Source: Streptomyces sp. AA1529 (GTDB lineage: Bacteria; Actinomycetota; Actinomycetes; Streptomycetales; Streptomycetaceae). Taken from it: a stretch of DNA of 64,000 nucleotides. How positions within the stretch are numbered: the stretch's first letter is position 1; each line of letters begins with the position of its first letter. Below, one piece after another: positions 21,114-57,987 of this stretch. The notes under the pieces are model-generated. The model saw nothing but the letters and a program-made list of their open reading frames with translations, did not search any database and was not told the origin of the DNA. Position numbers and translations under genes: made by a program. Location of the stretch: assembly GCF_000280905.1 (NCBI RefSeq), contig NZ_ALAP01000099.1, forward strand, positions 1 through 64,000, given 5' to 3'.

Positions 21114-21119
21114 TCCGCT

Positions 21120-21869: not shown

Positions 21870-22729
21870 ACGAGTCGGCGCTGGTCGCCCTGCGGGGCGT
21901 GTCCTTCGCGTACGAGGACGGCCCGGTCGTGCTCGGCGCCCTCGACTTCGAGGTGCACGAGGGCCGCGCCCTCGCCCTCCTGGGCCGCAACGGCAGCGGC
22001 AAGACCACCCTGATGCGGCTGCTCAGCGGCGGGTTGCGGCCTCGGAGCGGGCAACTGGCGGTGGCGGGCGACCCGGTCCGGCACGACCGCAAGGGCCTCA
22101 CCCGGCTCCGCACGGCCGTGCAGCTCGTCGTGCAGGACCCCGACGACCAGCTGTTCGCCGCGTCCGTCGCCCAGGACGTCTCCTTCGGGCCGCTCAACCT
22201 CGGGCTGCCCGCCGCGCAGGTGCACGAGCGCGTCCAGGAGGCGCTCACCGCGCTGGACATCGCGGCACTCGCCGACCGGCCCACCCATCTGCTCTCCTAC
22301 GGCCAGCGCAAACGGGCCGCGATCGCGGGCGCGGTCGCGATGCGGCCGCGGGTGCTGATCCTGGACGAGCCGACGGCGGGGCTCGACCCCGACGGCCAGG
22401 AGCGGCTGCTGGCGACCCTCGGCGAGCTCCGGGACGGCGGCACCACGGTGGTGATGGCCACGCACGACGTCGATCTCGCGCTGCGCTGGGCCGACGACGC
22501 CGCGCTGCTCACCCCGGGCGGGGTGCGCTCCGGCCCGGTGGACGCCGTCCTCGCACGCCCGGAACTGCTGCGCGAGGCCGGTCTGGGACTGCCCTGGGGC
22601 ATCGCCGCGCGGGAGCTGCTGCTGGCGTACGAGATGCTGGAGGACGCCGCGTCCGCCCCGCGCACCCCGGCCGAACTGGCCGCTCTGGCCGCCCTGCGAG
22701 CCGTCCCCCGGACCGCGGCCGAGGGGTGA
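21866..22729 (+). CDS. cbiO: Cobalt ECF transporter ATPase CbiO
   Basis: A 287-residue ABC ATPase. Walker A is LLGRNGSGKTTL (about residues 40-51), the Q-loop is VVQDPDDQLF, and Walker B is VLILDEPTAGLDPDG. The signature is LLSYGQRKRAAIAGAVAM, in which SYGQRKR replaces the usual SGGQ as often seen in CbiO, and the switch histidine is in ATHDVD. It completes a full cbiMNQO operon under riboswitch control. The C-terminal ~40 residues extend beyond the nucleotide-binding domain. Confidence 0.95.
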   Translation: MNESALVALRGVSFAYEDGPVVLGALDFEVHEGRALALLGRNGSGKTTLMRLLSGGLRPRSGQLAVAGDPVRHDRKGLTRLRTAVQLVVQDPDDQLFAASVAQDVSFGPLNLGLPAAQVHERVQEALTALDIAALADRPTHLLSYGQRKRAAIAGAVAMRPRVLILDEPTAGLDPDGQERLLATLGELRDGGTTVVMATHDVDLALRWADDAALLTPGGVRSGPVDAVLARPELLREAGLGLPWGIAARELLLAYEMLEDAASAPRTPAELAALAALRAVPRTAAEG

Positions 22730-29962: not shown

Positions 29963-31048
29963 TCAGAGCACCCGGCGCAGCCAGCCGTGGGTGTCCTCGG
30001 CGCGGCCGTACTGGATGTCCAGCACCCGCGCGCGCAGGGCCGCCGTCTGCTTGCCCGGCTCACCGTCGCCGATGGCGAAGGCGTAGCCGTCGCCCTTGAA
30101 GCCGACGATCGGGGTGACCACCGCCGCCGTCCCCGCCGCGAACACCTCCGTGACGGTGCCGTCGGCGGCTCCGGACCGCAGCTCATCCAGGGTGATCTGG
30201 CGCTCCTCGCAGGTCAGTCCGGACTCGGCGGCCAGGGTGAGGATGGTGTCCCGGGTGACCCCCTCCAGGATGGTGCCCAGCGCCGGGGTGATCAGCCTGC
30301 CGTCCGCGGTGACCAGGCACAGGTTCATCGTGCCCGACTCCTCCAGGTACCCCTCGCCCGCGCTGTCCAGATACAGCACCTGGTCGCAGCCGTGCTCCTC
30401 GGCCTCCAGCTGTGCGGCCAGGCTGCCCGCGTAGTTGCCGCCGCACTTGGCGGTGCCGGTACCGCCCTTGCCCGCCCGGGTGTAGGTGCCGCTGACCCAC
30501 AGGGTCACCCCGGAGAGGCCGCCTTCGAAGTACGAGCCCGCCGGACTCGCGATCACCGAGAAGACGATCTCCTTGGCGGGCCGCACCCCCAGGAACGCCT
30601 CGGAGGCGAACATGAACGGCCGCAGGTAGAGGCTCTCCTCGTTGCTCGGCGTCGGCACCCAGGGCTCGTCGGCCCGGATCAGCTCCTCCACCCCCGCCAG
30701 GAAGTCCTCCTCGGGCAGCTCCGGCAGGGCCATCCGCCGCGCGGAGCGGGCGAAGCGCCGCGCGTTGGCCTCGGGGCGGAAGAGCCACACGCTGCCGTCC
30801 GCGTGCCGGTAGGCCTTGAGTCCCTCGAAGATCTCCTGCGCGTAGTGCAGCACGGCGGCGCTGGGGTGCAGCGAGAACGGCTCCAGCGGGCCGACCCGGT
30901 GGCCGTGCCAGCCGCGCCCGGCCGACCAGGTGGCCGTGGACATGTGGTCGGTGAAGAACCGGCCGAAGCCCGGCGCCGCGAGGATCTCCTGCCGCTCCGC
31001 CGGGGAAACGGGACTCGTCGTCCTGGTGAGGGGGAAGTCAGAGGCCAC
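29963..31048 (-). CDS. ilvE: Branched-chain amino acid aminotransferase
   Basis: A 361-residue fold-type IV PLP transaminase. SAAVLHYAQEIFEGLKAYR near residues 68-86, RPFMFASEAFLGV, the PLP-lysine region GTAKCGGNYAGS, and EESGTMNLCLV are typical of IlvE. It interconverts Val/Leu/Ile and their 2-keto acids, which feed branched acyl-CoA starters. GTG 31048 has AAGGAG six bases upstream. It follows the fabI gene in the same direction after 118 bases. This may be the housekeeping ilvE or a cluster-dedicated supplier of branched starter units; only genome context would tell. Confidence 0.92.
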   Translation of the reverse strand: MASDFPLTRTTSPVSPAERQEILAAPGFGRFFTDHMSTATWSAGRGWHGHRVGPLEPFSLHPSAAVLHYAQEIFEGLKAYRHADGSVWLFRPEANARRFARSARRMALPELPEEDFLAGVEELIRADEPWVPTPSNEESLYLRPFMFASEAFLGVRPAKEIVFSVIASPAGSYFEGGLSGVTLWVSGTYTRAGKGGTGTAKCGGNYAGSLAAQLEAEEHGCDQVLYLDSAGEGYLEESGTMNLCLVTADGRLITPALGTILEGVTRDTILTLAAESGLTCEERQITLDELRSGAADGTVTEVFAAGTAAVVTPIVGFKGDGYAFAIGDGEPGKQTAALRARVLDIQYGRAEDTHGWLRRVL

Positions 31049-31166
31049 GGCCAACTCCTTACGCCGATGCGGCTGTCGCGGTGCGGGCACCGCCGCCGAT
31101 GTTCGTGTCTGCCGACGCCGCACACCGACGTCACCCGGTCGATGTTAATGACCGTTAAGCGGTACG

Positions 31167-31970
31167 TCACCGAGGGGGTTCGCCGATTCCGCCCGCGACG
31201 GCGTGCAGCCCGCCGTCGGCGTGCACGATCTGGCCGGTGGTGTGTGCGGCGAGGTCGGAGAGCAGGAAGAGCACCGCGCCCACGACCTGCCCCGGATCGG
31301 TGCGGTCCCAGCCCAGTGGCGCCCAGCGCTCGTAGTGCTCGGCGAGCGCCTCGAACGAGCCGATGCCCTGCGCGGAGAGCGTCTCCAGCGGCCCCGCGGC
31401 CACGAGGTTGACCCGCACCCCGCGCGGACCCAGATGCGCGGCCAGATAGCGGGCCACCGCCTCCAGGGTCGACTTGAAGACGCCCATCCAGTCGTAGCCG
31501 GGCAGGGCCCGGGAACTGTCCACGGTCACCCCCACGACGCTGCCCCCGTGCTGCGAGGCGGTCAGCAGCGGGGCGAGGGCGGCCGCCAGACGCTGCAGCG
31601 AGTAGGCCGAGACCTGGAAGCCCCGCAGCGCGCCGGCCGCCGGGGTCTCCAGGAAGGCACCGCTCACCGCGTCGGCGGGCGCGTACGCCACGCTGTGCAG
31701 CACCCCGTCCAGGGCGCCCCAACGCGCCTGGAGCTCCTCGGCCAGGCGGGCGAAATCCCCCTCGTCGGTGACGTCGAGCTCCAGCACGTCCGGCTCGCGG
31801 GGCAGCCGGGCCGCGGCCTTGCGGGCGATCCGCGCCGTGCGGCCGAAGGAGCTGAGCACCACCTCGGCACCGGCGCGCTGCAGTGCGGCCGCCACATGCC
31901 AGGCGATGGACTCCTGGTTGGTCACCCCGGTCACCAGATACCGCCGGCCGGTGAGGTCGTACGTGCTCAC
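31167..31970 (-). CDS. fabI: Enoyl-ACP reductase, FabI-type
   Basis: A 267-residue short-chain dehydrogenase of the FabI type. YLVTGVTNQESIAWHVA is the nucleotide-binding motif, HSVAYAPADAV carries the first active-site tyrosine, and YDWMGVFKSTLEA carries the Y-x6-K pair specific to FabI/InhA. It reduces enoyl-ACP in fatty-acid elongation. GTG 31970 overlaps the end of the ketosynthase gene by four bases (GTGA). Actinomycetes usually have one housekeeping FabI/InhA elsewhere, so this copy, embedded with its own ACP and synthase, is probably pathway-specific. Confidence 0.88.
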   Translation of the reverse strand: MSTYDLTGRRYLVTGVTNQESIAWHVAAALQRAGAEVVLSSFGRTARIARKAAARLPREPDVLELDVTDEGDFARLAEELQARWGALDGVLHSVAYAPADAVSGAFLETPAAGALRGFQVSAYSLQRLAAALAPLLTASQHGGSVVGVTVDSSRALPGYDWMGVFKSTLEAVARYLAAHLGPRGVRVNLVAAGPLETLSAQGIGSFEALAEHYERWAPLGWDRTDPGQVVGAVLFLLSDLAAHTTGQIVHADGGLHAVAGGIGEPPR

Positions 31971-33139
31971 GGCGCCCCCAGTACCAGCACACTGTTGTGG
32001 CCGCCGAAGCCCAGCGAGTTGGACAGCCCCAGTCGGCCGCGCGGCCCGGCGCTCAGCGTGCGGGCGGCCTGGATGTGCGACAGCCGCCCCAGCTCCGGGT
32101 CGGGCGCGGCCAGGCCGAGAGTGGGCGGGGCGAGCCGGTCGCGCAGCGCGGCCAGGGTGACGATGGCCTCCACCGCGCCGCCCGCACCGAAGAGGTGGCC
32201 GGTCGCGGCCTTGGTGGAGGAGAGCGGTACCGACGGCAGGGCCGCTCCCAGGGCCAGCTCCAGGGAGCGGATCTCGGACGCGTCGTTCAGCGGGGTGCCG
32301 GTGCCGTGCGCGTTGAGGTAGCACAGGTCCTCGGGGGCGGCACCGGCGTCGGCCAGCGCCTGCGAGACGGCGTGCGCGGCCGGCGCGCCGTCCGGTGGCG
32401 GGGCCGTGACGTGGTGGGCGTCGGAGCCGGCCCCGTAGCCCCGGACATGGCCCAGGACGCGGGCGCCCCGGGCACGGGCCCCGGCCGCGTCCTCCAGGAC
32501 GAGGACTCCCGCGCCCTCGCCCATCACGAAGCCGTCCCGGTCCGCACTGAACGGGGCGCAGCGCCCGGTGGGGGAGAGGGCGCCGGCCTGGGCGAAGGAC
32601 TCCCGCACCAGCGGCACGCAGGCGGCCTCGGCGCCGCCGGCGAGCACCGCCCGGGCCTCGCCCCGGCGGATCGCCCCGGCGGCGAGACCGATGGCCTGGG
32701 CGCCGGCTGCGCAGGCCCCGGAGGGAGCGGTGGACTCGCCGCGGATGCCGTAGCGGCGGCTGAGGCTCGCTGCGGCGCTGTTGGGCATCATCAGCGGCAC
32801 CGTCAGCGGGCTCGCCGTCCGCGCCGCCAGGACCTCGGGGCCACCGCCCAGGCCGCTGCCGATCACGCAGCGGACGTCCTCGGCCGGGTAGGGGAGTCCG
32901 TCGTCCCAGCCCGCCTGCCGCACCGCCTCGTCGGCGGCGACGAGGGCGAACTGTGCGAACCGGGCGTTCCGCTTGCGGTCGCGTGCCGTCAGGTGGTCGC
33001 GCGCGTCGAAATCCGTGCACCGCGCCTCACCGCCGTCGATCCCGGTTCCGCCCGCGACCAGCCGCGAGACGAGCCGGGCGGCACCGACGCCGAGCGGGGT
33101 GACCGCACCGACGCCGGTGACGGCGACCGCGACCGTCAA
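31967..33139 (-). CDS. Beta-ketoacyl-ACP synthase, FabF (KAS II)-like
   Basis: A 390-residue thiolase-fold condensing enzyme with the Cys-His-His triad: SGACAAGAQ (Cys near 143), [11 protein letters not shown] (His near 277) and KAATGHLFGAGG (His near 312). It extends acyl-ACP with malonyl-ACP. The start is probably TTG 33139, overlapping the acp stop (TTGA); no ATG or GTG lies near. The tight acp-KAS-fabI overlap implies one transcript. It is not a chain-length-factor pair, as no second subunit is present. Confidence 0.87.
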   Translation of the reverse strand: MTVAVAVTGVGAVTPLGVGAARLVSRLVAGGTGIDGGEARCTDFDARDHLTARDRKRNARFAQFALVAADEAVRQAGWDDGLPYPAEDVRCVIGSGLGGGPEVLAARTASPLTVPLMMPNSAAASLSRRYGIRGESTAPSGACAAGAQAIGLAAGAIRRGEARAVLAGGAEAACVPLVRESFAQAGALSPTGRCAPFSADRDGFVMGEGAGVLVLEDAAGARARGARVLGHVRGYGAGSDAHHVTAPPPDGAPAAHAVSQALADAGAAPEDLCYLNAHGTGTPLNDASEIRSLELALGAALPSVPLSSTKAATGHLFGAGGAVEAIVTLAALRDRLAPPTLGLAAPDPELGRLSHIQAARTLSAGPRGRLGLSNSLGFGGHNSVLVLGAP

Positions 33140-33384
33140 CGCGCGGCCGCTTCCACGACCCGCCGGGCGAGCTGGTCCACGGTGACCTCCGCCAGTTCGG
33201 GCCGCGGGATGGTGACGCCGTACTCCCGCTTGAGGGTCGACATCAGCTCCGCTGCGTCGAGCGAGTCGATGTCGAGATCGTCGAACCTGGCGTCGGGCGT
33301 GAGGGTCTCCTCCTCGACTCCGGAGTCGACCAACTCCGTGCGGATCAGGTCCCGTACGGTCTCGACGGTGACGGGTTCGGCCAT
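33136..33384 (-). CDS. Free-standing acyl carrier protein
   Basis: An 82-residue acidic four-helix ACP. DDLDIDSLDAAELMS contains the phosphopantetheine serine at residue 41 in the D-S-L motif. The ATG has AAGGAG six bases upstream, and the stop overlaps the start of the ketosynthase gene. It probably carries the acyl chain for the adjacent KAS and FabI enzymes, and perhaps for the radical SAM and di-iron proteins encoded just upstream. Confidence 0.92.
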   Translation of the reverse strand: MAEPVTVETVRDLIRTELVDSGVEEETLTPDARFDDLDIDSLDAAELMSTLKREYGVTIPRPELAEVTVDQLARRVVEAAAR

Positions 33385-33481
33385 GGCTGCTCCTTGGTGT
33401 GGTGCGGTGCTGTGTCGGGCGAGCGGAAGGAGGGGGCGGGAGAGGGCAGGGCGGCGGTGCCGCGGGTCGGTCGGGCGGGCC

Positions 33482-34594
33482 TCAGCGGGCGAAAGCGGGG
33501 GCGTGCGACTGCGCCCAGTACCACTGGCGCCAGTAGCTCTCGGCGAGGTCCAGCCAGGTCTCCAACCGCTGCACGCTGTCGAGGAACCGGTGGAAGCTGA
33601 CCATCAGCCAGCTGTAGACGGCCTGGCTGTCGCGGCAGCCGTCGCAGTCGCCCGAGGTGCAGCAGAACTGCAGGGTCTCGTAGTCGGCGCCGTACACGGC
33701 GAAACCGTCCAGCACCGGATTGCCGTTGGCCACGCGCTGCTCGTGCTCCGGCAGGTCGACGCTGATGCTGGGGCACACGTCGTAGCCGAACCGGCCGCCC
33801 CAGTGGGTGCGCCCGGTGATCAGCGTCTCGATGAAGTACGGGTGCGCGACCACGGCCTCCGGATATGCCTCCGCGACCCGCAGCGCTTCGGCGAGCGTGC
33901 GCTGCTCGTCGTCGATCCGCAGCGGACTGTCCGAGCCGTGCTCGCTGTAGAAGTTGAACGTCACCTGGTTGCCGTTGTCCCGGATCGCCCGCACCGTCGG
34001 CTCGATGTACGGCAGCCCCGCCTCCGAGAGGGCGAAGACGAACGTGACCCTGGGATCGTCCCGGTAGTGGCCCAGCGCCTTCTCGAACAGCCCGGTGAAG
34101 GAGGAGCCGTTGGGCCGGTGCGCGCGCAGCTCGTCGTCCAGTGGCCCGCCGCCGAACAGGCTGATGCCGACGGCCACGTTCTCGAAGCCGTCCATCGGCA
34201 GCGGACGCAGCCCGTTGGTGGAGATCGTCAGATACGGCAGCTGCTCGACGAAGGGGCGCACCCGGTCCAGCACCAGGGTCGGCTCGCCGCCGATGAGTGT
34301 CGCCTGGGTGACCCCGTCCGCGGCGAGCTTCTCCGCGAAGGCCCGGATCAGGCCGGGGTCGGAGGTCTCCCGGACCGCCGTGTCGAAGCCGCCCTCGAAG
34401 TACCAGCAGCCCTTGCAGCGGATGTTGCAGGTGGTCGTCAGATGCACCTCGCATCCGCGCACCCGCGTCCCCATTCTGCGCACGTCCTTCAGCCGGGCCG
34501 CGAGATCCGGGCGGTCGGCCAGATGCCCCCGCAGCCGTGCCTTGGCCTCCGCGCGGGAGGGCGGGCGCGGGGTGATGTGTACTGCTGTGGTCAT
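33482..34594 (-). CDS. Radical SAM protein with C-terminal cysteine cluster
   Basis: A 370-residue radical SAM enzyme. C56-x3-C60-x2-C63 (TTTCNIRCKGCWYFEGG) binds the catalytic 4Fe-4S cluster, and TLIGGEPTL is the glycine-rich SAM-binding GGE motif. Further cysteines at about 285 (DVCPS) and in QFCCTSGDCDGC near residues 319-330 suggest an auxiliary SPASM/twitch-type cluster. Such enzymes modify peptides, sugars or small molecules by hydrogen abstraction. No peptide precursor gene is visible nearby. GGGAGG lies five bases before ATG 34594. It is 14 bases after the di-iron gene and 97 before the acp. The substrate is unknown; a carrier-bound acyl chain is one possibility. Confidence 0.88.
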   Translation of the reverse strand: MTTAVHITPRPPSRAEAKARLRGHLADRPDLAARLKDVRRMGTRVRGCEVHLTTTCNIRCKGCWYFEGGFDTAVRETSDPGLIRAFAEKLAADGVTQATLIGGEPTLVLDRVRPFVEQLPYLTISTNGLRPLPMDGFENVAVGISLFGGGPLDDELRAHRPNGSSFTGLFEKALGHYRDDPRVTFVFALSEAGLPYIEPTVRAIRDNGNQVTFNFYSEHGSDSPLRIDDEQRTLAEALRVAEAYPEAVVAHPYFIETLITGRTHWGGRFGYDVCPSISVDLPEHEQRVANGNPVLDGFAVYGADYETLQFCCTSGDCDGCRDSQAVYSWLMVSFHRFLDSVQRLETWLDLAESYWRQWYWAQSHAPAFAR

Positions 34595-34608
34595 GGCTGC
34601 CTCCCGGC

Positions 34609-35328
34609 TCATTCCGGCACGCGCAGGCCCAGGTTGGCGACTCGCGGACCGACCTTCTGCCGCCACAGCTCGATCGCCTCGCCGTTGGTCGTCCTGCGCA
34701 GCCCGTAGCGCACCGCCAGCTTCGAGCGCTTGGTGTTCGCACTGCCGAAGATGCCCACGAACATCGGCCACAGCCGCTCCAGCGCGGCCTGTAGTTCGGC
34801 GCGGCCCTCCTCGGTGGCGGCGAGGTTGCGGCAGACCCGCGCGCCGTGCGCGATGTGGATCTTCTCGTCCAGGATGATCGTGCGGACGGCCTCCGCCCAT
34901 GGCTTGTAGCTGCTCTCCGCGAACTCGCGCAGCATCACCATCGCGGTCTCCTCGCCGATGTAGGAGTACACCCCCCGCTCGGCCCACGTGGTGCAGGAGT
35001 GCATCCGCTCGTCCGCGAACAGCATCCGCTCGGAGACCGCCTGGGTCTCCATGTAGGTGGTGTCGATGCCGAGATCGGCCAGCACCCGCTTGCCGATCTT
35101 GTAGTGGTCGTACTCCTCGGCGGCCCGCTCCGCGCACACCTGGCGTTCCTCGGCGTCCGGCGCCAGCGGCAGGAACATCTGTACATAGTCGTCGCCGCCC
35201 GAGAGCTCACCCTCGGTGTTGATGGTGACCTGACTGATCAGCATCTTCTGGTAGTCGCGGGGCATCCGGTGGAACTCGTCCGGGGTGCGCACCACGACTT
35301 CCTCGTCGTCCAGGACCGCGATCGTCAT
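34609..35328 (-). CDS. PaaA/PaaC-like ferritin-fold di-iron protein
   Basis: A 239-residue protein of the phenylacetyl-CoA epoxidase (PaaA/PaaC) ferritin-like family. Candidate iron ligands are E39, E72 and H75 (EEYDHY), E126 (YIGEETA) and E155 with H158 (LDEKIH), giving two Glu sets and two ExxH motifs as in di-iron oxygenases. The other Paa subunits (B, C, D, E) are not present in the window, so it must act alone or with an unlinked reductase. GAGAGG lies about seven bases upstream of ATG 35328. It leads the minus-strand operon with the radical SAM gene. Hydroxylation or epoxidation of an acyl-thioester is a reasonable guess only. Confidence 0.78.
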   Translation of the reverse strand: MTIAVLDDEEVVVRTPDEFHRMPRDYQKMLISQVTINTEGELSGGDDYVQMFLPLAPDAEERQVCAERAAEEYDHYKIGKRVLADLGIDTTYMETQAVSERMLFADERMHSCTTWAERGVYSYIGEETAMVMLREFAESSYKPWAEAVRTIILDEKIHIAHGARVCRNLAATEEGRAELQAALERLWPMFVGIFGSANTKRSKLAVRYGLRRTTNGEAIELWRQKVGPRVANLGLRVPE

Positions 35329-35471
35329 AAGCGACCTCTCAGCTCTGCCTCGTGCCGACGTGCGGGAAGCAGCACGATCGCGACAGCCGCACGACGCGGC
35401 GCACGGCCCGAACCGACCCCCCGTTGTCCCTCGAGCACACAGTGCCACAACGCGCGCTGCCAGGAACAGCC

Positions 35472-35500
35472 TTGACATCCAGGACCGGGATATGGATGTC
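35472..35500. promoter_or_regulatory. Inverted repeat overlapping a possible promoter in the PKS cluster
   Basis: GACATCC (35474-35480) and GGATGTC (35494-35500) are perfect inverted repeats with a 13-base spacer, centred between the divergent di-iron and ketosynthase genes. TTGACA at 35472-35477 is a consensus -35; 17 bases downstream GATGTC is a weak -10. The palindrome would overlap both elements for the plus-strand ketosynthase. Possible operator of a cluster regulator. Confidence 0.5.
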
Positions 35501-35587
35501 TTGAACCAACTGGACGCTGTGCACGGGAAGTTCGACCGACCGGCGCGGGGCTGGAACCGCGGCCGCCACCTGCTAGCGTCGCGGCCG

Positions 35588-37357
35588 ATGTCAACTTCCC
35601 AGCAGTCGGACGCTCACCCGCCCGGCGCGGCAGCGGAGGCGCCCGCCGGGCCGCTGCGCCGCGCCATGGAGACGATCCGCGCCCTGCGCGGCGAGCTGGC
35701 CGCCTTGCGGGGAGCGCAGCGGACGGCCGTCGTCGGCACCGGTCTGCGCGCCCCCGGCGGCATCGCCGGCCGCGACGCCTACTGGCAGGCGCTGGCGGCG
35801 GGGCAGGACCTGGTGGGCGAACTGCCCGAGCAGCGCCGCCGCGCCTTCCCCGGCGGCTGGGAAGGGCTGCTGACCCGCGGTGGCTATCTGCCCGACGTCC
35901 TCGGCTTCGACGCCCGCTTCTTCGGCATCTCGCCGCGGGAGGCGCGCAGCCTCGACCCGCAGCACCGGCTGCTGCTGGAAGTGGTGTGGGAGGCGTTCGA
36001 GGACGCCGCCCTGCCCCCGGAGGACGTCGCCGAGCGCACCGGGGTCTACGTCGGCATCACCGGCCAGGACCACCGGCTGTGGGACGAGGGCGAACCCAAC
36101 GCCTCCTGGCTGATCGGCAACGGCCACTGCTTCGCCGCCGGCCGGCTCGCCTACACGCTCGGCCTCCGGGGCCCCGCACTGGCGCTGGACACCGCGTGCT
36201 CGTCGTCGCTGGTGGCGGTGCACACGGCCTGCCGGGCGCTGGCGGCCGGAGACTGCGACGTGGCCGTGGCCGGCGGCGTCAACCTGGTGCTCGCGCCCCG
36301 GTCGACGGCGGAGATCCAGCGCACCGAGGCGCTCTCGCCCGACGGCCGGTGCCGCCCCTTCGACGCGCGCGCCAACGGGTTCGTCCGGGGCGAGGGCGCC
36401 GGTGCCGTCGTGCTCAAGCGGCTGGCCGACGCCGAGCGCGACGGCGACCGGATCCTCGGGGTGATCGAGGGCAGCGGAGTCAACCAGGACGGCCGCTCCT
36501 CCGGGTTCACCGCACCCAACGTACTGGCCCAGCAGACCCTGATCGAGGGCGTTCTCACCGCGGCCGGCCTCACCGGCGCCGACATCGGCTACCTGGAGGC
36601 GCACGGCACCGGCACCCCGCTGGGCGACCCGATCGAGATCGAGGCCGCCCGGGCCGCCCTGGACTCGCCGGGGCGCAGCTGGCATGTCGGATCGGTCAAG
36701 GCGAACCTCGGCCATGCCGAGGCCGCCGCCGGCATCCTCGGCCTGATCAAGGCGCTGCTCTGTCTGGAGCGGCGGCAGATCCCGCGCCAAGCCCACTTCG
36801 AGACGCTCAACCCCCGGATCCGCCTGGACGGCAGCGGTCTGACGGTACCGGCCGAGACCCGGCCCTGGGAGCCGTCGGCGGGCCGGTGCGCGGCCGTCAG
36901 TTCCTTCGGGATGAGCGGCACCAACGCGCACGTCGTCCTCTCCCGTCCCACCGCCGGGCCCGTACCGGCTCCCGCACCGGCCGCCGGATTCCCGGTGTAC
37001 GCGCACACCGAAGCGGCCCTGCGCACCCTGGCGGGCCGGTACGCGCGACGACTGGCCGAGTCCGGGGACGGCGCGTCCGCCGGGGACGGATACGCGGCCT
37101 TCGCCACGACCGCGCAGCACGGGCGCACCCGGCTGCGGCGGGCCGCCTGGATCACCGCGGCGGGCTCCGAGGAGGCCGCGGAAGCGCTGCGCGCCCTCGC
37201 GGCGGGCCGGGACCATCCGCGGGTGCGGATGCTGGAGACCGCCGAGCACCCCCCGCCCGGCAGCGCGGACGGCACCGCCCAGGAGCGTCCGGTCCGCGCG
37301 GGCATGACCGCGCTGCCGGGCTACCCGTGGGAGCGGACGACCTACTCCAGCCGCTGA
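35588..37357 (+). CDS. Free-standing type I PKS ketosynthase lacking an acyltransferase
   Basis: A 589-residue protein. After a short charged helix ([20 protein letters not shown]-like, a docking-domain type segment near residues 20-45), it is a complete modular-PKS ketosynthase: [12 protein letters not shown] (Cys near 204), [12 protein letters not shown] (His near 339), [10 protein letters not shown] (His near 376) and [14 protein letters not shown] closing it. The remaining ~130 residues look like the KS-AT linker and end with [10 protein letters not shown], the sequence normally found after an acyltransferase. No AT motif (GHSxG) is present between. It therefore looks like a KS-AT protein from which the AT was deleted, though the KS triad is intact. 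It is convergent with the thioesterase/PKS genes. Confidence 0.87.
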
Positions 37358-37410
37358 ACGCGCACGCACCGCCGCCCGGCGCACCGCCCTACGGGCGTCC
37401 GCTCCCGCCC

Positions 37411-37854
37411 TCAGCGCGCGCCCGCACCGGGCCGGCTCCGCCTCCCCGGAAACGAGAAGTGCAGCGTGGCCAGGGCGACGGGGCACCCGTCCGGGCTCTC
37501 GACCCGTGCCGAGACGACCGCCGTACGCCGGCCGATCCGCTCGGGCACGACGCGCGCGTGCAGCCGCTCCGGCGCGGTTGCCTCCAGGAAGCTGATGCTG
37601 CTGGAGGTCAGCATCGCCGACGGCGTCCCGCCCAGATAGGCGTTCACCGCCAGATAGCCCGCCACGTCCGCGAACGCGAACAGGGCGGGCCCGGAGACGG
37701 TGCCGCCGGGCCGCACCGTGAGCCCCGCCGGGTCCGCGACGAACACCAGCCCGCCGGGCCCGACGTCGAGGAGGTCGACGCCCGGCGGATCGGGCAGATA
37801 TGCGGCGATCAGGTCCCGGATCTGCGCGGGCCCGAGGACCGGCCCGTCACCCAT
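37411..37854 (-). CDS. Hotdog-fold acyl-CoA/ACP thioesterase (PaaI-like)
   Basis: A 147-residue hotdog thioesterase. GGTVSGPALFAFADVAGYLAV contains the helix with the catalytic Asp/Gly region of the PaaI/4HBT type, followed by LTSSSISFLEATAPERLHARVV. The start overlaps the end of the PKS gene by eight bases, so the two are co-expressed. The PKS itself ends with an ACP and has no thioesterase domain, making this protein the probable chain-release or editing enzyme. Confidence 0.82.
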   Translation of the reverse strand: MGDGPVLGPAQIRDLIAAYLPDPPGVDLLDVGPGGLVFVADPAGLTVRPGGTVSGPALFAFADVAGYLAVNAYLGGTPSAMLTSSSISFLEATAPERLHARVVPERIGRRTAVVSARVESPDGCPVALATLHFSFPGRRSRPGAGAR

Positions 37855-40800
37855 GGGCCCCCGCCTCGTCCGCAGCCGGGGCGGCCGGGGGGCGGGGCCC
37901 CGCCCCCGCCTCCCCTTCCGGTCCGGCCTCCACCAGCGCGGTCAGCGCCGGGGCGAGCCGGGCCAGGGTGCCGTACTTCCACAGCAGCGTCGGGCTCAGC
38001 CGCACCCCCAGGAACGCCTCGAGCTTGTTGCGCAGCTCCAGCGACATCAGCGAGTCCAGCCCGAGTGCGCGCAGCGGCACATCGTGCGGCAGCTTCTCCG
38101 GCGCCAGGCGCAGTACCGCCGCCGCCGTACGGCGCACCTCCGCCTCCACCACCTCGCGCCGCCGCGCCGCCGGGATGCTCCGCAGCTCCGTCGGCGCGAC
38201 CGTTCCGCCGGTCCCGGCGAGCGGCTGCCAGCTCGCCAGCGCGGCCGCCGCCGGGTAGGACTCCAGCCAGTGCCGCGGATCGAGGTCGAGGCAGGCCACC
38301 TGCGCCTCGTCCGACTCCAGATACCGCCGCAGCGCCCGCCAGCACACCTCGGCCGGGACACTGCCCAGCCCGCGCGCCGCGAGCCGGTCCCCGCGCCCGG
38401 TGCCGGTGGCCATCCCGGCTCCGGAGACCGGCCCCCACTGCACGCTCAGCGCCGGCAGCCCCGCCGCCCGCCGCTGCGCCGCCAACGCGTCCAGGGCGCT
38501 GTTCGCCGCCGCGTAGGCCGCCTGCCCGGCTGTGCCCACGAACGCGGCGGCGGAGGAGAACAGCACGAACAGGTCCAGCGCGTCCCCCTCGGTCAGCTCG
38601 TGCAGGACGCGTGCTCCGTCGGCCTTCGGCCGCAGCACCCGCGTCAGCAGCGCGCCGTCCAGGTTCGCCACGGTCGCATCCGCCAGCACCCCCGCTGCAT
38701 GGAAGACCCCGCGCAGCGGCGGCAGTTGCGCGCGCACCTCCGCCAGCACCGTGCGCATCCGCGCCTCGTCGGCCACGTCCGCCGACCACACCCCCACCCG
38801 CACGCCGCGCTCGCGCAGCGCCTCGACCCGCTCCGGGTCCCGGGGCGCCGAGCGCCCGACCAGGGCCAGGGCGCCGGCTCCGGAGGCGGCCAGGTACTCG
38901 GCGAGCGACATGCCGAGCGCCCCGAGCCCGCCGGTGATCAGATAGCTGCCCGCGGCCCGGAACCGTCCCCCGGGCAGCGGCTGCGGGGCGACGGGAACCG
39001 TGCCGCCTCCGCTCGGGATCGGCTCGGTGAGTACGAGCTTGCCGGTGTGCCGCCCGTGGGAGAGCGTGCGGAAGGCCTCCTGGGCCTGCGTGAAGGGCAT
39101 CTCGCGCACCGGCAGCGGCCGCAGTTCCCCGCCCGTCACCCGCGCCCACACGGTGGCCAGGAGCGCCGCGAACCGTTCGGGGCGGCGGCGGAGCAGCCCG
39201 GCGACGTCCACGGCGGTGAAGGACACCGCCTTGCGGAAGGCACCCAGTTCGACGGATGTCTCCCGATGGATGTCGCGCTTCCCGGCCTCCACGAACCGCC
39301 CGTCCTCGGCCAGCGCCTCCAGACCGAGCGGAATCGCCGCCCCGGGCAGGGAGTTGAGCACCACGTCGACGCCGCGCCCCCCGGTCGCGGCCCGCACCCC
39401 CTCGGCCCACTCCAGGGTGCGGGAGTCGAAGACGTGCTCCACGCCCCCGGCGCGCAGCTGCTCCCGCTTCTCCTCGGTACCGGCCGTGGCGATCACCTCG
39501 GCTCCCGCGAGCCGGGCCACGCGCAGCGCGGCGAGTCCGAGCCCGCCGGCGGCCGAGTGCACGAGCACGGTCTCGCCCGGCTCCAGCCGGGCCACCTCCA
39601 TCAGCGCGTACCAGGCGGTGACCAGCACCATCGGCAGCGCCGCCGCCTGCGCCGCGGTCAACTCCCGCGGAATGCGGGCGGTGTGCCGGGCCTCGACCAG
39701 CGCGTGCGAGGCCAGGACGCCGAAGCCGCAGGCCGCCACCCGGTCACCGACCGCCACGCCGCCGGCCCCCGGACCGACCGCGGTCACCGTGCCCGCGCAG
39801 TCCAGGCCGAGCAGTTCCCGGCCGGGGGAGTGGTCGTCCGGGTAGACGCCCATCGCCTTCATCACGTCGATGAAGTTCAGCGACGCGGCCTCGACCGCCA
39901 CCTCGACCTGTCCGGGGCCCGGCCGGGGCCGCTCCAGCGGACGGGCGCACAGCGCCGACAGGTCGCCCGGCCGCGGAGTGCCCAGCCGGAACGGCTGGGC
40001 GCCCGAGCCCGTCCGCCACGGCGGGTCGGCGGCGGGCGGACCTCCGCTCACCCGCTCGCCCACCAGCCGCTCGCCGCCGGACAGCACGACCCGGTCCTCC
40101 GTGGCGGCGAGCTCCGCCACCAGGTCGGCGTCGAACGTGTCGGTCTCGATCAGCCGCGTCCCGAACTGTGGGTACTCCGCCTGCACGACCGCCACGAACC
40201 CCGGGTACAGCCCGGCGTCCGGGTCGCCCCGGCGGACCACCACCGCCAGCCGCGCGGACGGGTTCTCGTCCGCGCAGCGGCCGACCAGCCGTGCCAGCTC
40301 CAGCAGCCCGTCCCGGCCCTCCTGCGGCGCGACGAACACCACGGTGTCCGCCCCGGCCGGATCCTCCCCGGCCATGTCCGGCAGCACCCCGGGCCGCCCG
40401 CGGACCACCACCTTGCCCGGCAGCCCGCCGTCCCCGGCCGCGCCGTCCGGCCCCGCAGCCGGGGCGGCGGGCCGCTCCCGGGGCACGAAGCGCATCCGGT
40501 AGGTGAGCCGCCCGGTCTCCGCGGCGTCGCCGGCGCCGCCGGGAAGCGCCGTCAGCAGCACTCCCTCCAGCCGTCCCAGCGGGCGCTGCCCGGTGTCGAA
40601 GAGCGCCAGGTCGACCTCGCCCCCCGCGCCCGGCCGGGCGTGCACCCACAGGGCGTCGGCGTCCGTCACCGCGACCGCGGCCCGCCGGACCCGGCGCGGC
40701 AGGACCGGACCGTCGCACACGACCAGCGCGGCCTGCAGCATGCCGTCCCACAGCACCGGGTGCGGTGTCCCCGACAGCGCCCCCGAGCGGCTGCCGGGAG

Positions 40801-43800
40801 GCAGTTCGAGCCGGACCAGTGCCTCCCGTCCGGTTCCCGAAGCGGCTTCGGCGACGTGGCCGCCGGCGATCGGCCGGAAGGCGGGTCCGTAGTCGAGGTC
40901 TCTCGCCGCGCAGTCCCGGTAGAAGCCGTCCGCGTCCAGTGGCGCGGCGCCCAGCAGGTGTGCGGGGAACCCGCCGGCCGGCGGGGCGCTGTCGCGGGCG
41001 GCTGTCGCACGGCAGTGCCGCGTCCACCCGGCATCCGCCTCCGCGCCGGGTGCGGGCCCGGTCGAGCCGGCCTCGCGGGACCGCACCTCCAGCGCGCCCG
41101 AGTCCCCGGGGCCGGGGCGCTGGACGAGGGCGGTGCGGACCGGTTCCTCGCCCACCGCCAGCGCGCCGGTCAGCTGCACGTCCCGCAGCACGGGCGTCCC
41201 CCGCCCGGCGGATCCGGACTCGTGCGCCCCGCCGTGCAGCGACTGGTGGAGCAGCGCCAGGAAGCCGCCCGCCGGGAACAGCACCGTGCCGTGCACCCGG
41301 TGGTCGGCCAGCCACGGGTGGGTGCCCGTGTCCAGTTCGACGGCGCTCTCCCGCACGCCGCCCGCGGTCGAGGGCACCTCGGCCGGGACCAGCCGCCCGC
41401 TGCGGACTCCGCTGTGCCGTCCCGGCGCGACCCAGTACCGCTCCCGCTGGAAGGGGTAGGGCGGCGGAACGGCGTCCGGGCGCCGCGCCGGGCGCGGTCC
41501 GAGCGCGGGCAGGCCCGAGACGTAGGCTTCCGCGAACGCGCGCATCAGGTCCGGGTGTTCGCCCTCGTCGCGGCGCAGTGTGCCCAGCACCACCGGTGGT
41601 TCCGGCCGCTCCTCCGCGAGCTGGCGCAGTGCCGCGCCGAGTCCCGGATGCGGGCTGACCTCCACCAGGTGGGTGACGTCCTCGTCGATCAGGGTGTCCA
41701 CCGCCTCGGCGAACCGCACCGGGCGGCGCAGGTTCTCGGCCCAGTAGCGGGCATCCGCCTCCGGCCCGCGCAGCCGGGTGAGGCCGACCGTGGAGAGCAG
41801 CGGTGTGTCCGCGGGGCCCGGCGCGACGGCTGCGAGCGCCTCGCGGATCCTCGGCAGGAGGGGATCGACTTGCGGGCTGTGCGAGCCGTAGTCGACGTCG
41901 ACCAGCCGGCAGAACACTCCGTCGGCCTCCAGGATCTCCCGCAGCAGCAGCACCGAGTCGGCGTCGCCGGACAGCACGCAGGAGCGCGGCCCGTTGTACA
42001 CCGCCGGTTCGACCAGTCCCTCGAAGCCCGCGACGGCCTGCCGTGCCGCGTCCGGAGCCAGGTCCACGGCCAGCATCCGCCCGCCGCCGGCGATCTCGCG
42101 CAGCAGGCCGCTGCGGCGGCAGACCACCAGCGCCCCGTCCTCCGGCGTGAGCACACCGGCGACCGTGGCGGCGGCGATCTCGCCCTGGCTGTGCCCGACG
42201 ACGACATCCGGCTCCACCCCGGCCGCCCGCCACGCCGCGGCCAGCGACACCGACATCGCCCACAGCGCGGGCTGCACCTCGGCCACGTCCCGCGGTGCCG
42301 GGCCGCCCGTGACCATCTCGCGTACGTCGCGCGGCGCATGCGGGGCCAGCGCCCGTGCACAGCGGTCCATGGCCCGAGTGAACGCGGCGTCGCGCCCGTA
42401 GAGGCCCGCGCCCATGCCCGCCCACTGGGCGCCCTGGCCGGGGAAGACGAAGGCGACCTTGCCCCGCCGCCGGGCGCGGCCCCGCGCCACCTCCGCCAGG
42501 TCCGGGCCCAGCAGAGCGCACCGCTCCGCGAAGTGGTCCCGGTGCCAGGCCATGGCCCGCGCCAGCTCCGGTGCCGACGTACCCGCGGCCAGCTGCTCCC
42601 GGATGCCGCGGGTCCGTTCCTCCAGCGCCCGGGGGGTGTGCCCGCTGACCGGCAGCAGGAACGGCTCACCGGCCTCCTGCCGCGCCGCCGCGCCGGGCTC
42701 CTCCCGCACGGCCCGGGAGTCCTGCTCCGGGGTCCGGTCCTGCTCGGGCGTCCGGGCTGGAGCCGGTCTCGCGGCCCGGGCGGACGGCTGCGCGGTCGCG
42801 GCCTGCGGCGTGGTGACGACGGCGTGGGCGTTGGTGCCGCCCCAGCCGAAGGAGTTGACGCCGAGGAAGCTGCCGGGCTCCAGCGGCAGCGGGTCCCGGG
42901 TGACGGCGAGGTTCAGCCCGGTGAAGTCGATGGCCGGGTTGGGCACCTGCGCGTGCAGGCTCGGCGGGACGGTGCCGTGCTCCAGCGCCAGGACGGCCTT
43001 GACGAGTCCGGCGAGTCCGGCGGCCGGCTCCAGATGGCCGATGTTGGTCTTCACCGAGCCGATGTGCAGCGCACGGCCGGGCCGGGCCGCGCCCAGCACC
43101 TCGCCGAGCGCCTGCGCCTCGGCCGCGTCCCCGCGTGCGGTGCCGGTGCCGTGCGCCTCGACGTAGGCGAGCCGGTCCAGTGGGATGCGGCCGGAGGCGT
43201 AGACGCCGCGCAGCAGGTCGCGCTGCGCGGCCGGATGCGGAGTGACCAGGCTCTCGCCGCCGCCGTCGTTGTTGACCGCGCTGGCCGCCACCACCGCGCG
43301 GATCCGGTCGCCCGCGCGGCGGGCGTCGGCCAGCCGCTTGAGGTAGACCACGGCGACGCCCTCGCCGCGGACGAACCCGTCCGCGGCGGCGCCGAAGGCG
43401 TGGCAGCGGCCGGTGGGGGACAGGCCGCCGAAGTGGGTGAGGCCGACCGTCACCTCGGGCGTGAGCATCAGATTGGAGCCGCCGACCAGGGCTCCCTCGA
43501 TCTCGCCGGAGCGCAGCGCCTGGCAGGCCTGGTGCACGGCGACCAGGGAGGAGGAGCAGCTGCTCATGAGCGTCAGGCTGGGCCCGGTCAGTCCGAGGTG
43601 GTAGGAGACCCGGGAGGAGACGATGTCCAGTGAGTTCCCGACGATGCTGTGCTGGGTCACCGCGGCGCCCCGGTCCTTGCGGAGCAGTTCGTAGTCGTGC
43701 CAGAGCCCGCCGACGTAGACGCCGGTGCGGGAGCCGCGCAGCGCGGACGCGGGTGCACCGGCGTCCTCCAGGGCCCGCCAGGTCGTCTCCAGCATCAACC

Positions 43801-44071
43801 GCTGCTGCGGGTCGAGCACTTCGGCCTCGCGCGGTGAGATCGTGAAGAAGACCGGGTCGAACGCGTCGATGTCCTCCAGGAACGCGCCGACCCGCTGGAT
43901 CTCCCGGGTCGCGTCGAACACCGCTGCCGGATCCCAGCGTTCGGGCGGCACCGGCCCCACCGCGTCGCCCCCGCCGATCAGCAGTTCCCAGAACGCCTCC
44001 GTGTCCGGCGCCTGCGGGAAGCGCCCCGCCATGCCGACGACCGCCACCGCACCGCTGTCCGCGTCACTCAT
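37847..44071 (-). CDS. Fully reducing type I polyketide synthase, KS-AT-DH-ER-KR-ACP (MAS-like)
   Basis: A 2074-residue one-module synthase. [13 protein letters not shown] (Cys near 172), EAHGTGTARGD, NIGHLEPAAG. AT: FPGQGAQWAGMG near 543, GHSQGE with the Ser near 627, YGSH near 728. DH: DHRVHGTVLFP (H-x3-G-x4-P) near 924, LWDGMLQ. ER: HSAAGGLGLAAL near 1505. KR: TGGLGALGMSLAEYL near 1714 and AAYAAANSALDALA (Tyr near 1852). ACP: LGLDSLMSLELRN (Ser near 2006). All domains keep catalytic residues. The domain order matches mycocerosic acid synthase and other iterative reducing PKSs. GHSQG with YGSH leans toward methylmalonyl-CoA. ATG 44071 has GGGGGAGG upstream. Confidence 0.95.
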   Translation of the reverse strand: MSDADSGAVAVVGMAGRFPQAPDTEAFWELLIGGGDAVGPVPPERWDPAAVFDATREIQRVGAFLEDIDAFDPVFFTISPREAEVLDPQQRLMLETTWRALEDAGAPASALRGSRTGVYVGGLWHDYELLRKDRGAAVTQHSIVGNSLDIVSSRVSYHLGLTGPSLTLMSSCSSSLVAVHQACQALRSGEIEGALVGGSNLMLTPEVTVGLTHFGGLSPTGRCHAFGAAADGFVRGEGVAVVYLKRLADARRAGDRIRAVVAASAVNNDGGGESLVTPHPAAQRDLLRGVYASGRIPLDRLAYVEAHGTGTARGDAAEAQALGEVLGAARPGRALHIGSVKTNIGHLEPAAGLAGLVKAVLALEHGTVPPSLHAQVPNPAIDFTGLNLAVTRDPLPLEPGSFLGVNSFGWGGTNAHAVVTTPQAATAQPSARAARPAPARTPEQDRTPEQDSRAVREEPGAAARQEAGEPFLLPVSGHTPRALEERTRGIREQLAAGTSAPELARAMAWHRDHFAERCALLGPDLAEVARGRARRRGKVAFVFPGQGAQWAGMGAGLYGRDAAFTRAMDRCARALAPHAPRDVREMVTGGPAPRDVAEVQPALWAMSVSLAAAWRAAGVEPDVVVGHSQGEIAAATVAGVLTPEDGALVVCRRSGLLREIAGGGRMLAVDLAPDAARQAVAGFEGLVEPAVYNGPRSCVLSGDADSVLLLREILEADGVFCRLVDVDYGSHSPQVDPLLPRIREALAAVAPGPADTPLLSTVGLTRLRGPEADARYWAENLRRPVRFAEAVDTLIDEDVTHLVEVSPHPGLGAALRQLAEERPEPPVVLGTLRRDEGEHPDLMRAFAEAYVSGLPALGPRPARRPDAVPPPYPFQRERYWVAPGRHSGVRSGRLVPAEVPSTAGGVRESAVELDTGTHPWLADHRVHGTVLFPAGGFLALLHQSLHGGAHESGSAGRGTPVLRDVQLTGALAVGEEPVRTALVQRPGPGDSGALEVRSREAGSTGPAPGAEADAGWTRHCRATAARDSAPPAGGFPAHLLGAAPLDADGFYRDCAARDLDYGPAFRPIAGGHVAEAASGTGREALVRLELPPGSRSGALSGTPHPVLWDGMLQAALVVCDGPVLPRRVRRAAVAVTDADALWVHARPGAGGEVDLALFDTGQRPLGRLEGVLLTALPGGAGDAAETGRLTYRMRFVPRERPAAPAAGPDGAAGDGGLPGKVVVRGRPGVLPDMAGEDPAGADTVVFVAPQEGRDGLLELARLVGRCADENPSARLAVVVRRGDPDAGLYPGFVAVVQAEYPQFGTRLIETDTFDADLVAELAATEDRVVLSGGERLVGERVSGGPPAADPPWRTGSGAQPFRLGTPRPGDLSALCARPLERPRPGPGQVEVAVEAASLNFIDVMKAMGVYPDDHSPGRELLGLDCAGTVTAVGPGAGGVAVGDRVAACGFGVLASHALVEARHTARIPRELTAAQAAALPMVLVTAWYALMEVARLEPGETVLVHSAAGGLGLAALRVARLAGAEVIATAGTEEKREQLRAGGVEHVFDSRTLEWAEGVRAATGGRGVDVVLNSLPGAAIPLGLEALAEDGRFVEAGKRDIHRETSVELGAFRKAVSFTAVDVAGLLRRRPERFAALLATVWARVTGGELRPLPVREMPFTQAQEAFRTLSHGRHTGKLVLTEPIPSGGGTVPVAPQPLPGGRFRAAGSYLITGGLGALGMSLAEYLAASGAGALALVGRSAPRDPERVEALRERGVRVGVWSADVADEARMRTVLAEVRAQLPPLRGVFHAAGVLADATVANLDGALLTRVLRPKADGARVLHELTEGDALDLFVLFSSAAAFVGTAGQAAYAAANSALDALAAQRRAAGLPALSVQWGPVSGAGMATGTGRGDRLAARGLGSVPAEVCWRALRRYLESDEAQVACLDLDPRHWLESYPAAAALASWQPLAGTGGTVAPTELRSIPAARRREVVEAEVRRTAAAVLRLAPEKLPHDVPLRALGLDSLMSLELRNKLEAFLGVRLSPTLLWKYGTLARLAPALTALVEAGPEGEAGAGPRPPAAPAADEAGAHG

Positions 44072-45264: not shown

Positions 45265-46260
45265 ATGCAGGCACGAACCCTGGGCAGCACCGGCCCGACC
45301 GTTTCCACCCTGGGCCTGGGTGCCATGGGTATGTCGGGCGCCTACGGTGCGACCGACAGGGCGGAGAGCATCGCCACCGTGCACGCCGCCTTGGACGCAG
45401 GCGTCACGCTGATCGACACCGGCGACTTCTACGCCATGGGACACAATGAACTGCTGCTCGCGGAGGCGCTGCGCGGCCGGGACCGGGACACCTACACACT
45501 GAGCGTCAAATTCGGCATGCTGCGCGGGCCCGGCGCGGGCTTCGGCGGATGCGACGCCCGGCCGGAGGCGGTGAAGAACTTCCTCGCCTACTCGCTGACC
45601 CGGCTGGGCACCGACCACATCGACCTCTACCGCCCGGCCCGGCTGGACCCCTCCGTACCGATCGAGGAGACGGTGGGCGCGATCAAGGAGATGGTCGACG
45701 CCGGACACGTACGGCACATCGGCCTCTCGGAGGTCGACGCGGCGACGGTCCGCCGGGCGCAGGCCGTGCACCCGATCGCCGACCTGCAGATCGAGTACTC
45801 GCTGATCTCCCGCGCGGTGGAGGCCGACATCCTGCCCACCCTGCGCGAGCTCGGCGTGGGCCTGACCGCCTACGGAGTCCTCGGCCGCGGGCTCATCTCC
45901 GGACACTGGACCCCCGGCCGCACCGCCGGCCCCGGCGACATGCGCGGCTCCAGCCCCCGGTTCTCCGAAGGCAACGTGGAACACAACCTCACCCTGGTGG
46001 AGGCGCTGCGCCGGGTCGCGGAGGCCAAGGGCTGCAGCGTCGCGCAGCTGGCCATCGCCTGGGTGGCCGCCCAGGGCGACGACATCGTCCCCCTGGTCGG
46101 CGCCCGCACCCGCGAGCGACTCGCCGAGGCGCTCCCCGCGACGGAACTGACCCTGACCACGGAGGACCTGGCCGCCATCGAGCGCGCCGTGCCGCCGGGC
46201 GCCGCACGCGGAGACCGGTACCCGTCCGCACTCATGGCGGGCCTCGGCGCGGGCAACTGA
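45265..46260 (+). CDS. Aldo/keto reductase
   Basis: A 331-residue NADPH-dependent aldo/keto reductase. It has STLGLGAMGMSGAYG, the catalytic Asp in LIDTGDFYAMGHNE (Asp and Tyr), a lysine in SVKFGM, and IGLSEVDAATVRRA and PLVGARTRERLAEAL as cofactor-binding segments. The position usually holding catalytic His is altered: DLYRPARLDP replaces the common D-x-Y-x-x-H, so His seems to be absent. GGGGAAG lies six bases upstream of ATG 45265. It is divergent from, and probably regulated by, the MmyB-type regulator. Confidence 0.88.
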   Translation: MQARTLGSTGPTVSTLGLGAMGMSGAYGATDRAESIATVHAALDAGVTLIDTGDFYAMGHNELLLAEALRGRDRDTYTLSVKFGMLRGPGAGFGGCDARPEAVKNFLAYSLTRLGTDHIDLYRPARLDPSVPIEETVGAIKEMVDAGHVRHIGLSEVDAATVRRAQAVHPIADLQIEYSLISRAVEADILPTLRELGVGLTAYGVLGRGLISGHWTPGRTAGPGDMRGSSPRFSEGNVEHNLTLVEALRRVAEAKGCSVAQLAIAWVAAQGDDIVPLVGARTRERLAEALPATELTLTTEDLAAIERAVPPGAARGDRYPSALMAGLGAGN

Positions 46261-57932: not shown

Positions 57933-57987
57933 CGTCCGCCAGCACCCCCGCAAGCCCGAGCATCCCCGCAAGCAAAGGAAACCTCCC

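What the first reader, a model, noticed from the sequence alone, without database searches (positions are those of the whole stretch)
29963..44071. Unrecognised lipid/polyketide cluster combining FAS-type enzymes, radical SAM, di-iron protein and a MAS-like PKS
Seen directly: ilvE, fabI, fabF-like KAS, acp, radical SAM and PaaA-like di-iron genes run as a tight minus-strand series (fabI/KAS/acp overlap), next to a lone ketosynthase, a thioesterase and a complete reducing PKS. Established: fabI, KAS and ACP build fatty chains, IlvE makes branched starters, and KS-AT-DH-ER-KR-ACP synthases make reduced, methyl-branched chains. Inferred: a carrier-bound branched acyl chain is made, modified by radical and oxygen chemistry, extended by the PKS and released by the hotdog thioesterase. 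I do not recognise this gene combination from a described pathway.
Basis: partly seen in the sequence, partly recalled or inferred. Interest (0 to 1): 0.88.

Follow-up and report, generated by a model that had tools for sequence, protein, structure and literature searches.

The report
Streptomyces fatty amino acid gene cluster
A nine-gene Streptomyces cluster joins a methyl-branching polyketide synthase to a conserved but apparently undescribed pair of iron enzymes and an aminotransferase that together probably turn a carrier-bound fatty chain into an unusual amino acid.

Summary
A nine-gene set at 29963-44047 is real: iterative PKS, hotdog thioesterase, lone ketosynthase, PaaA-like di-iron protein, Twitch-type radical SAM enzyme, ACP, FabF-like KAS, FabI and IlvE. 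It keeps its order in other Streptomyces while the flanks diverge.

The interpretation changes. The constant core is not the PKS but the PaaA-like/radical-SAM pair, found in 56 non-redundant neighbourhoods from Actinomycetota and Proteobacteria. It usually has its own ACP, FabI, KAS and thioesterase, and an aminotransferase drawn from unrelated families. The chain-making front end varies: FabH, the PKS, cyclohexanecarboxylate-type genes, or a FAAL-ACP-KS. Micromonospora clusters hold every other window component, but with cyclohexanecarboxylate-type genes where the PKS would be.

Best reading (about 0.5): an acyl-ACP is oxidised at the alpha carbon by the two iron enzymes to an alpha-ketoacyl thioester, released by the thioesterase and transaminated to an alpha-amino fatty acid, here probably methyl-branched. 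Fungi make such amino acids with FAS or PKS chains and BCAT-like aminotransferases. The pair, its distribution and the aminotransferase linkage are shown; the chemistry and product are inferred. No description was found in the papers searched.

The parts
29963..31054 (-). IlvE-type (class IV) branched-chain aminotransferase, an extra copy; start uncertain (frame open to 31123)
   Evidence: TIGR01123 389 bits; one of three over the cut-off in the genome; conserved at the operon end in L037-L039 and L070
31167..31970 (-). FabI-type enoyl-ACP reductase, second copy in the genome
   Evidence: NF005908 314.5 bits over cut-off 299; another copy at G000:C78 with 428 bits
31967..33139 (-). FabF-like beta-ketoacyl-ACP synthase with the Cys and two His of active condensing enzymes; overlaps fabI and acp by 4 bases
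33136..33384 (-). free acyl carrier protein (LDIDSLD phosphopantetheine site)
   Evidence: PF00550 47.6 bits, sequence
33482..34594 (-). Twitch-type radical SAM enzyme, 370 aa. CX3CX2C at residues 56-63 (34406-34429); candidate auxiliary-cluster cysteines at residues 274, 311, 317 and 320
34609..35328 (-). PaaA-like di-iron oxygenase, 239 aa; ligand candidates E39 or E41, E72, H75, E126, E155, H158 invariant in 36 homologues
   Evidence: PF05138 65 bits
35519..37357 (+). lone type-I-like ketosynthase with N-terminal coiled-coil-like segment and a post-AT-like tail but no AT; start uncertain (frame open from 35285)
   Evidence: a similar lone KS lies beside IlvE and the thioesterase in L119 and L120
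37411..37854 (-). hotdog (PaaI/4HBT-like) thioesterase
   Evidence: PF03061 41 bits; hotdog genes in 33 of 56 neighbourhoods
37847..44047 (-). single-module reducing PKS: KS-AT-DH-ER-KR-ACP; AT with GHSQG and YGSH, methylmalonyl-like; start uncertain (frame open to 44176)
   Evidence: orthologues in G044, G217, L037, L039, partial in L038 and L070

Best explanation
The cluster makes an unusual alpha-amino acid with a fatty, probably methyl-branched, side chain. The PKS builds a reduced methyl-branched chain. The lone KS, KAS and FabI, with ketoreductase and dehydratase borrowed from primary metabolism, add at least one malonyl unit on the free ACP, so the alpha carbon becomes an unbranched CH2. 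The PaaA-like di-iron enzyme oxidises the ACP-bound chain at the alpha carbon, and the Twitch radical SAM enzyme takes it from hydroxyl to ketone, as the dehydrogenases BtrN and SpeY do. The thioesterase releases the alpha-keto acid and IlvE transaminates it. Shown: gene content, conservation, intact catalytic residues, predicted fold of the two iron enzymes, and linkage of an aminotransferase, thioesterase and ACP to the pair. Inferred: oxidation at the alpha carbon, division of labour between the two iron enzymes, order of PKS and FAS parts, and the product.
For: (1) The pair is a conserved unit: PaaA within 3 genes of the radical SAM gene in 56 non-redundant neighbourhoods, with pairwise identities correlated at 0.94 over 35 loci (neighbours that share descent correlate anyway). 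(2) An aminotransferase lies within 10 kb in 29 of 56, and on the same contig within 18 kb in five more that were checked, with two more likely by position. It comes from unrelated families: IlvE-II class IV, another class IV, and class I/II. From the gene counts about 1% would be expected per 20 kb. (3) Micromonospora L044/L119 and L046/L120 hold PaaA, radical SAM, ACP and FabI, then KAS, IlvE, lone KS and hotdog thioesterase, with cyclohexanecarboxylate-type genes where the window has its PKS, plus a condensation-domain protein. IlvE is not needed to make that starter. (4) Proteobacterial minimal sets are PaaA, radical SAM, thioesterase and aminotransferase; Roseateles L085 and Burkholderia L079/L122 add a LysE/RhtB-type amino-acid exporter. 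(5) The closest solved relatives by sequence include the Twitch dehydrogenase SpeY (7wzv, E 3e-4), and the candidate auxiliary-cluster cysteines are invariant. (6) The PaaA-like model matches CoA-thioester oxygenases PaaA and BoxB, Z 25 and 21. (7) Fungal aspercryptin uses BCAT-like AtnH and AtnJ, presumed to make 2-aminocaprylic, 2-aminodecanoic and 2-aminododecanoic acids (PMC8262921).
Against: No aminotransferase was found near the pair in about 20 of 56 loci, some on short contigs but not all (Tistrella L076/L077, L073/L074, L048, L053). The Nocardia radical SAM clade has P450 genes and no PaaA. A Twitch domain does not fix the reaction: MoaA and SkfB have one too (PMC6231123). PaaA itself works with PaaB, PaaC and PaaE and oxidises an arene; no such partners are in the cluster. 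No ketoreductase or dehydratase gene is in the cluster. IlvE is reversible and could feed the pathway. No NRPS was found among the window genes examined to show use of the amino acid.
Confidence: 0.5

Rival explanations
1. One reading: IlvE supplies a branched starter, the FAS-type enzymes build a chain, radical SAM and di-iron enzymes modify it, and the PKS extends it before thioesterase release.
For: Gene order within the cluster; IlvE homologues can feed branched starters (general knowledge); PKS and core are co-conserved in several Streptomyces genomes.
Against: Thioesterase and aminotransferase accompany the iron-enzyme pair in clusters without a PKS; IlvE persists beside a cyclohexanecarboxylate-type starter set; no decarboxylating ketoacid dehydrogenase was seen in the clusters examined.
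Confidence: 0.17
2. The iron-enzyme pair makes another change on the ACP-bound chain (desaturation, cyclisation, C-C or C-S bond formation), and the aminotransferase works on a different part of the pathway.
For: Radical SAM enzymes with this fold do many reactions (PMC6231123); pair present without a detected aminotransferase in about 20 of 56 loci.
Against: The repeated presence of aminotransferases from unrelated families, and minimal sets with little besides pair, thioesterase and aminotransferase.
Confidence: 0.2
3. The alpha-ketoacyl-ACP is the end point in some clusters and is passed on directly, with amination only in part of the family.
For: L048, L049 and L053 carry the same NRPS family (leading condensation domain, shown in G294/L030) beside the pair and no aminotransferase within 10 kb; an alpha-ketobutyryl cap of unexplained origin exists in mycoplanecin (PMC10817943).
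Against: The window cluster has IlvE and no NRPS gene found nearby; mycoplanecin itself uses a different gene set.
Confidence: 0.1

Closest known systems
Fungal alpha-amino fatty acid pathways (aspercryptin AtnH/AtnJ; from memory also cyclosporin Bmt with SimG-SimJ, and HC-toxin/apicidin)
   Same: FAS or reducing PKS chain, alpha-oxidation, then a BCAT-like aminotransferase
   Different: Fungi are thought to use a P450 and megasynthases (from memory); here a di-iron/radical-SAM pair acting with a free ACP. Not homologous as a system
Twitch radical SAM dehydrogenases SpeY and BtrN
   Same: radical SAM barrel plus one auxiliary Fe-S site with conserved cysteines; SpeY is found by sequence profile
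   Different: Known ones oxidise sugar-like alcohols; this family is linked to ACP-bound chains, and its activity is untested
Phenylacetyl-CoA epoxidase subunit PaaA and BoxB
   Same: di-iron helical fold and ligands; act on CoA thioesters
   Different: 23-24% identity to PaaA; no PaaB/C/E partners; far below the PaaA equivalog cut-off (72.7 vs 280 bits)
Mycobacterial MAS/Pks2-type iterative PKS
   Same: KS-AT-DH-ER-KR-ACP with a methylmalonyl-like AT
   Different: About 1070 bits against a Pks2 cut-off of 2400; linked to a free ACP, KAS and FabI
Mycoplanecin BGC (PMC10817943)
   Same: radical SAM, ACP, KAS and aminotransferase in one cluster; alpha-ketoacyl and homo-amino acid units
   Different: Its radical SAM is assigned as a methyltransferase, and its amino acids arise by 2-isopropylmalate-synthase-type elongation

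Membership tests
Radical SAM superfamily, Twitch/SPASM group | CX3CX2C cluster motif in a partial TIM barrel | tested here: met
   cysteines of CNIRCKGC invariant in 45 homologues; model pLDDT 88.8, SkfB Z 18.5 over 219 residues at 2.6 A; Pfam score is below its cut-off
Radical SAM superfamily, Twitch/SPASM group | auxiliary Fe-S cluster ligands in a C-terminal Twitch domain | tested here: inconclusive
   C274, C311, C317 and C320 invariant, but cluster binding and geometry were not measured
Radical SAM alcohol dehydrogenases (BtrN, SpeY) | oxidation of a secondary alcohol to a ketone | not testable with these tools
   needs enzyme assay; SpeY is only a remote sequence match
PaaA/PaaC di-iron proteins (PF05138) | family profile and carboxylate/histidine di-iron ligands | tested here: met
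   65 bits against 28.5; E72, H75, E126, E155 and H158 invariant
Phenylacetyl-CoA epoxidase complex | equivalog-level PaaA with PaaB, PaaC and PaaE partners | tested here: not met
   TIGR02156 72.7 vs 280 bits; no partner genes identified in the cluster
MAS-like iterative PKS | KS-AT-DH-ER-KR-ACP order | tested here: met
Mycobacterial Pks2/MAS equivalog | curated score cut-off | tested here: not met
   1069.9 vs 2400 bits
Alpha-amino fatty acid biosynthesis (fungal type, as a way of working) | chain builder, alpha-oxidation enzyme, release, and an alpha-keto-acid aminotransferase in one cluster | tested here: inconclusive
   candidate genes for each step present; position of oxidation untested
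Highly reducing type II PKS (cispentacin-like) | KS-CLF pair with KR and DH in the cluster | tested here: not met
   KAS hits AmcF at 218 vs 325 bits; no CLF partner, free KR or DH gene in the cluster

The most novel reading that the evidence does not exclude
A di-iron oxygenase and an oxygen-sensitive radical SAM enzyme form an undescribed two-step alpha-oxidation module for acyl-ACPs, spread through Actinomycetota and Proteobacteria, that lets bacteria turn almost any FAS or PKS chain into an alpha-keto or alpha-amino acid by exchanging the front end.
Probability: 0.35. Interest if true: 0.85.

Novelty: new variant of a known kind. Interest (0 to 1): 0.7.

Why it matters
Alpha-amino fatty acids occur in bioactive peptides, and fungal clusters for them are known; I found no description of a bacterial acyl-ACP route with this enzyme pair. 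If right, the module would be a genome-mining handle for many uncharacterised clusters in Streptomyces, Micromonospora, Nocardia, Burkholderia and Marinobacter, and a tool for making designed amino acids from PKS chains. It also poses a direct question: how an O2-using and an O2-sensitive enzyme share one substrate.

Tried and rejected
Searched PMC full text for the gene combination in several wordings: no match. Mycoplanecin was read and set aside because its radical SAM is assigned as a methyltransferase. Known radical SAM/PKS clusters such as jawsamycin (HemN-like cyclopropanase, from memory) were considered, but this protein is Twitch-like; not tested further. A sequence read in the wrong frame (33345-34742) gave no family and was replaced by 33482-34594. 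An alignment with three rows in the wrong orientation (A2) was discarded and remade. The housekeeping-FAS idea was dropped because the genome holds another FabI and two other IlvE genes. AKR (about 45300-46260) and SARP (46290-48233) were left out because they are absent next to the cluster in G217; VanZ, PPOX and the LAL regulator likewise. NCBIfam gives no family for the radical SAM protein.

Full report
Observation. The window lies in a 7.28 Mb genome (G000:C98); its closest named relative by the radical SAM protein is Streptomyces qinglanensis at 98%. The radical SAM gene is 33482-34594(-), with CNIRCKGC. KAS and the lone KS both keep the Cys-His-His residues of condensing enzymes. The AT motifs GHSQG and YGSH suggest methylmalonyl (motif rule from general knowledge). 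The genome has another FabI and two other IlvE-II genes, so these are extra copies.

Boundaries. In G217 the order PKS-TE-KS-PaaA-rSAM-ACP-KAS-FabI-IlvE is kept at 56-88% identity while the genes on both sides differ. L037, L038, L039 and L070 show the same order as far as their loci reach.

Distribution. The radical SAM protein has homologues in 14 of 395 Streptomycetaceae genomes, and 79 loci were fetched from named genomes, from Streptomyces, Micromonospora, Streptosporangium and Nocardia to Burkholderia, Marinobacter, Tistrella and Alteromonas. Genes were called with a simple GC-frame script and clustered by BLAST, so counts are approximate. In 56 non-redundant neighbourhoods the PaaA-like gene lies within three genes of the radical SAM gene. 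Of these, 36 have the ACP, 34 FabI, 30 a KAS, 33 a hotdog thioesterase, 18 FabH and 24 an acyl ligase; only 4 have the PKS called as such, with L038 partial.

Aminotransferase. Twenty-nine of the 56 have one within 10 kb. Searches of whole genomes add same-contig cases: L044 at 16.6 kb, L046 at 17.2 kb, L054 at 13.8 kb, L079 and L083 at about 11 kb, plus L045 and L047 likely by position. L107, which lies outside the 56, has one at 0.5 kb. The enzymes belong to unrelated families. From 3-4 class IV and 1-2 close class I genes per genome, chance would put one within a 20-kb stretch in about 1% of cases. Relatedness among loci inflates the counts, but the tree places these cases in several separate branches.

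Exchangeable front end. FabH-type clusters, PKS-type clusters, lone-KS clusters and cyclohexanecarboxylate-type clusters fall into orderly groups on the radical SAM tree; the PKS, cyclohexanecarboxylate and lone-KS types form one well-supported branch of 11 rows (100/99). Micromonospora L044/L119 and L046/L120 are the most telling: they contain PaaA, rSAM, ACP and FabI, then EPSP-synthase/ligase, acyl-CoA dehydrogenase, SDR and OYE-type genes, and further on KAS, IlvE, a lone KS and the hotdog thioesterase, with a P450 and a condensation-domain protein (the genes were recognised by eye from sequence, IlvE in part also by PF01063). The assignment of the EPSP-synthase set to cyclohexanecarboxylate follows the ansatrienin pathway from memory and a ligase match to TIGR03208 below its cut-off.

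Enzymes. The radical SAM model (pLDDT 88.8) matches SkfB, BlsE, viperin and anSME; the profile also finds SpeY, a Twitch dehydrogenase. Seven cysteines are invariant over 45 sequences. The PaaA-like model (pLDDT 92.7) matches PaaA and BoxB, which act on CoA thioesters, and its ligand residues are invariant over 36 sequences.

Mechanism. Because the thioesterase and aminotransferase recur with the pair and little else in proteobacteria, and a LysE/RhtB-type exporter follows in L085 and L122 (recognised by eye), I infer acyl-ACP to alpha-ketoacyl-ACP to alpha-keto acid to alpha-amino acid. A methylmalonyl-extended chain has a branched alpha carbon, so at least one malonyl unit must follow; that would explain KAS and FabI beside a complete PKS. 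The order remains unproved. Fungal aspercryptin aminotransferases give a precedent for the last step (PMC8262921). A caution: fold does not predict reaction in the Twitch group (PMC6231123).

Verdict. Interest 0.7.

Noticed in passing
L052:1-8608, L073, L074, L077: Variant of the pair with a Rieske oxygenase, an AurF-like di-iron protein and, in Streptomyces, a FAAL-ACP-KS protein; Tistrella mobilis carries two copies of the pair.
   Followed up: partly
L087, L090-L092, L096, L098-L104, L106, L114 (Nocardia) and L072: Nocardia clade has P450 or P450-like genes around the radical SAM gene and no PaaA; S. tauricus L072 groups with it. May be a P450 replacing the di-iron enzyme.
   Followed up: partly
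L048, L049, L053, L066: Pair next to a one-module NRPS (C-A-PCP-TE in G294/L030), P450, small ACP, Cys/Met-type PLP enzyme and an FAD oxidoreductase-like protein.
   Followed up: partly
L079:17223-20501: YcaO-like and SagB-like genes of a thiazole/oxazole-type peptide cluster beside the pair in Burkholderia (recognised by eye).
   Followed up: no
window 18559-19317 (-): FeeM/autoinducer-synthase-like acyltransferase, possibly an N-acyl amino acid synthase using acyl-ACP; not tested for a link to the cluster.
   Followed up: no
window 20044-22729 (+): CbiM/CbiQ-type cobalt or nickel transporter operon.
   Followed up: no
window 56916-58224 (+): CobW-family protein followed by a ribosomal protein S18 paralogue, as in zinc-limitation responses.
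   Followed up: no
window 25422-28208 (-) and 46290-48233 (-): A LuxR-type STAND regulator and a SARP regulator flank the cluster; neither is next to it in G217.
   Followed up: partly
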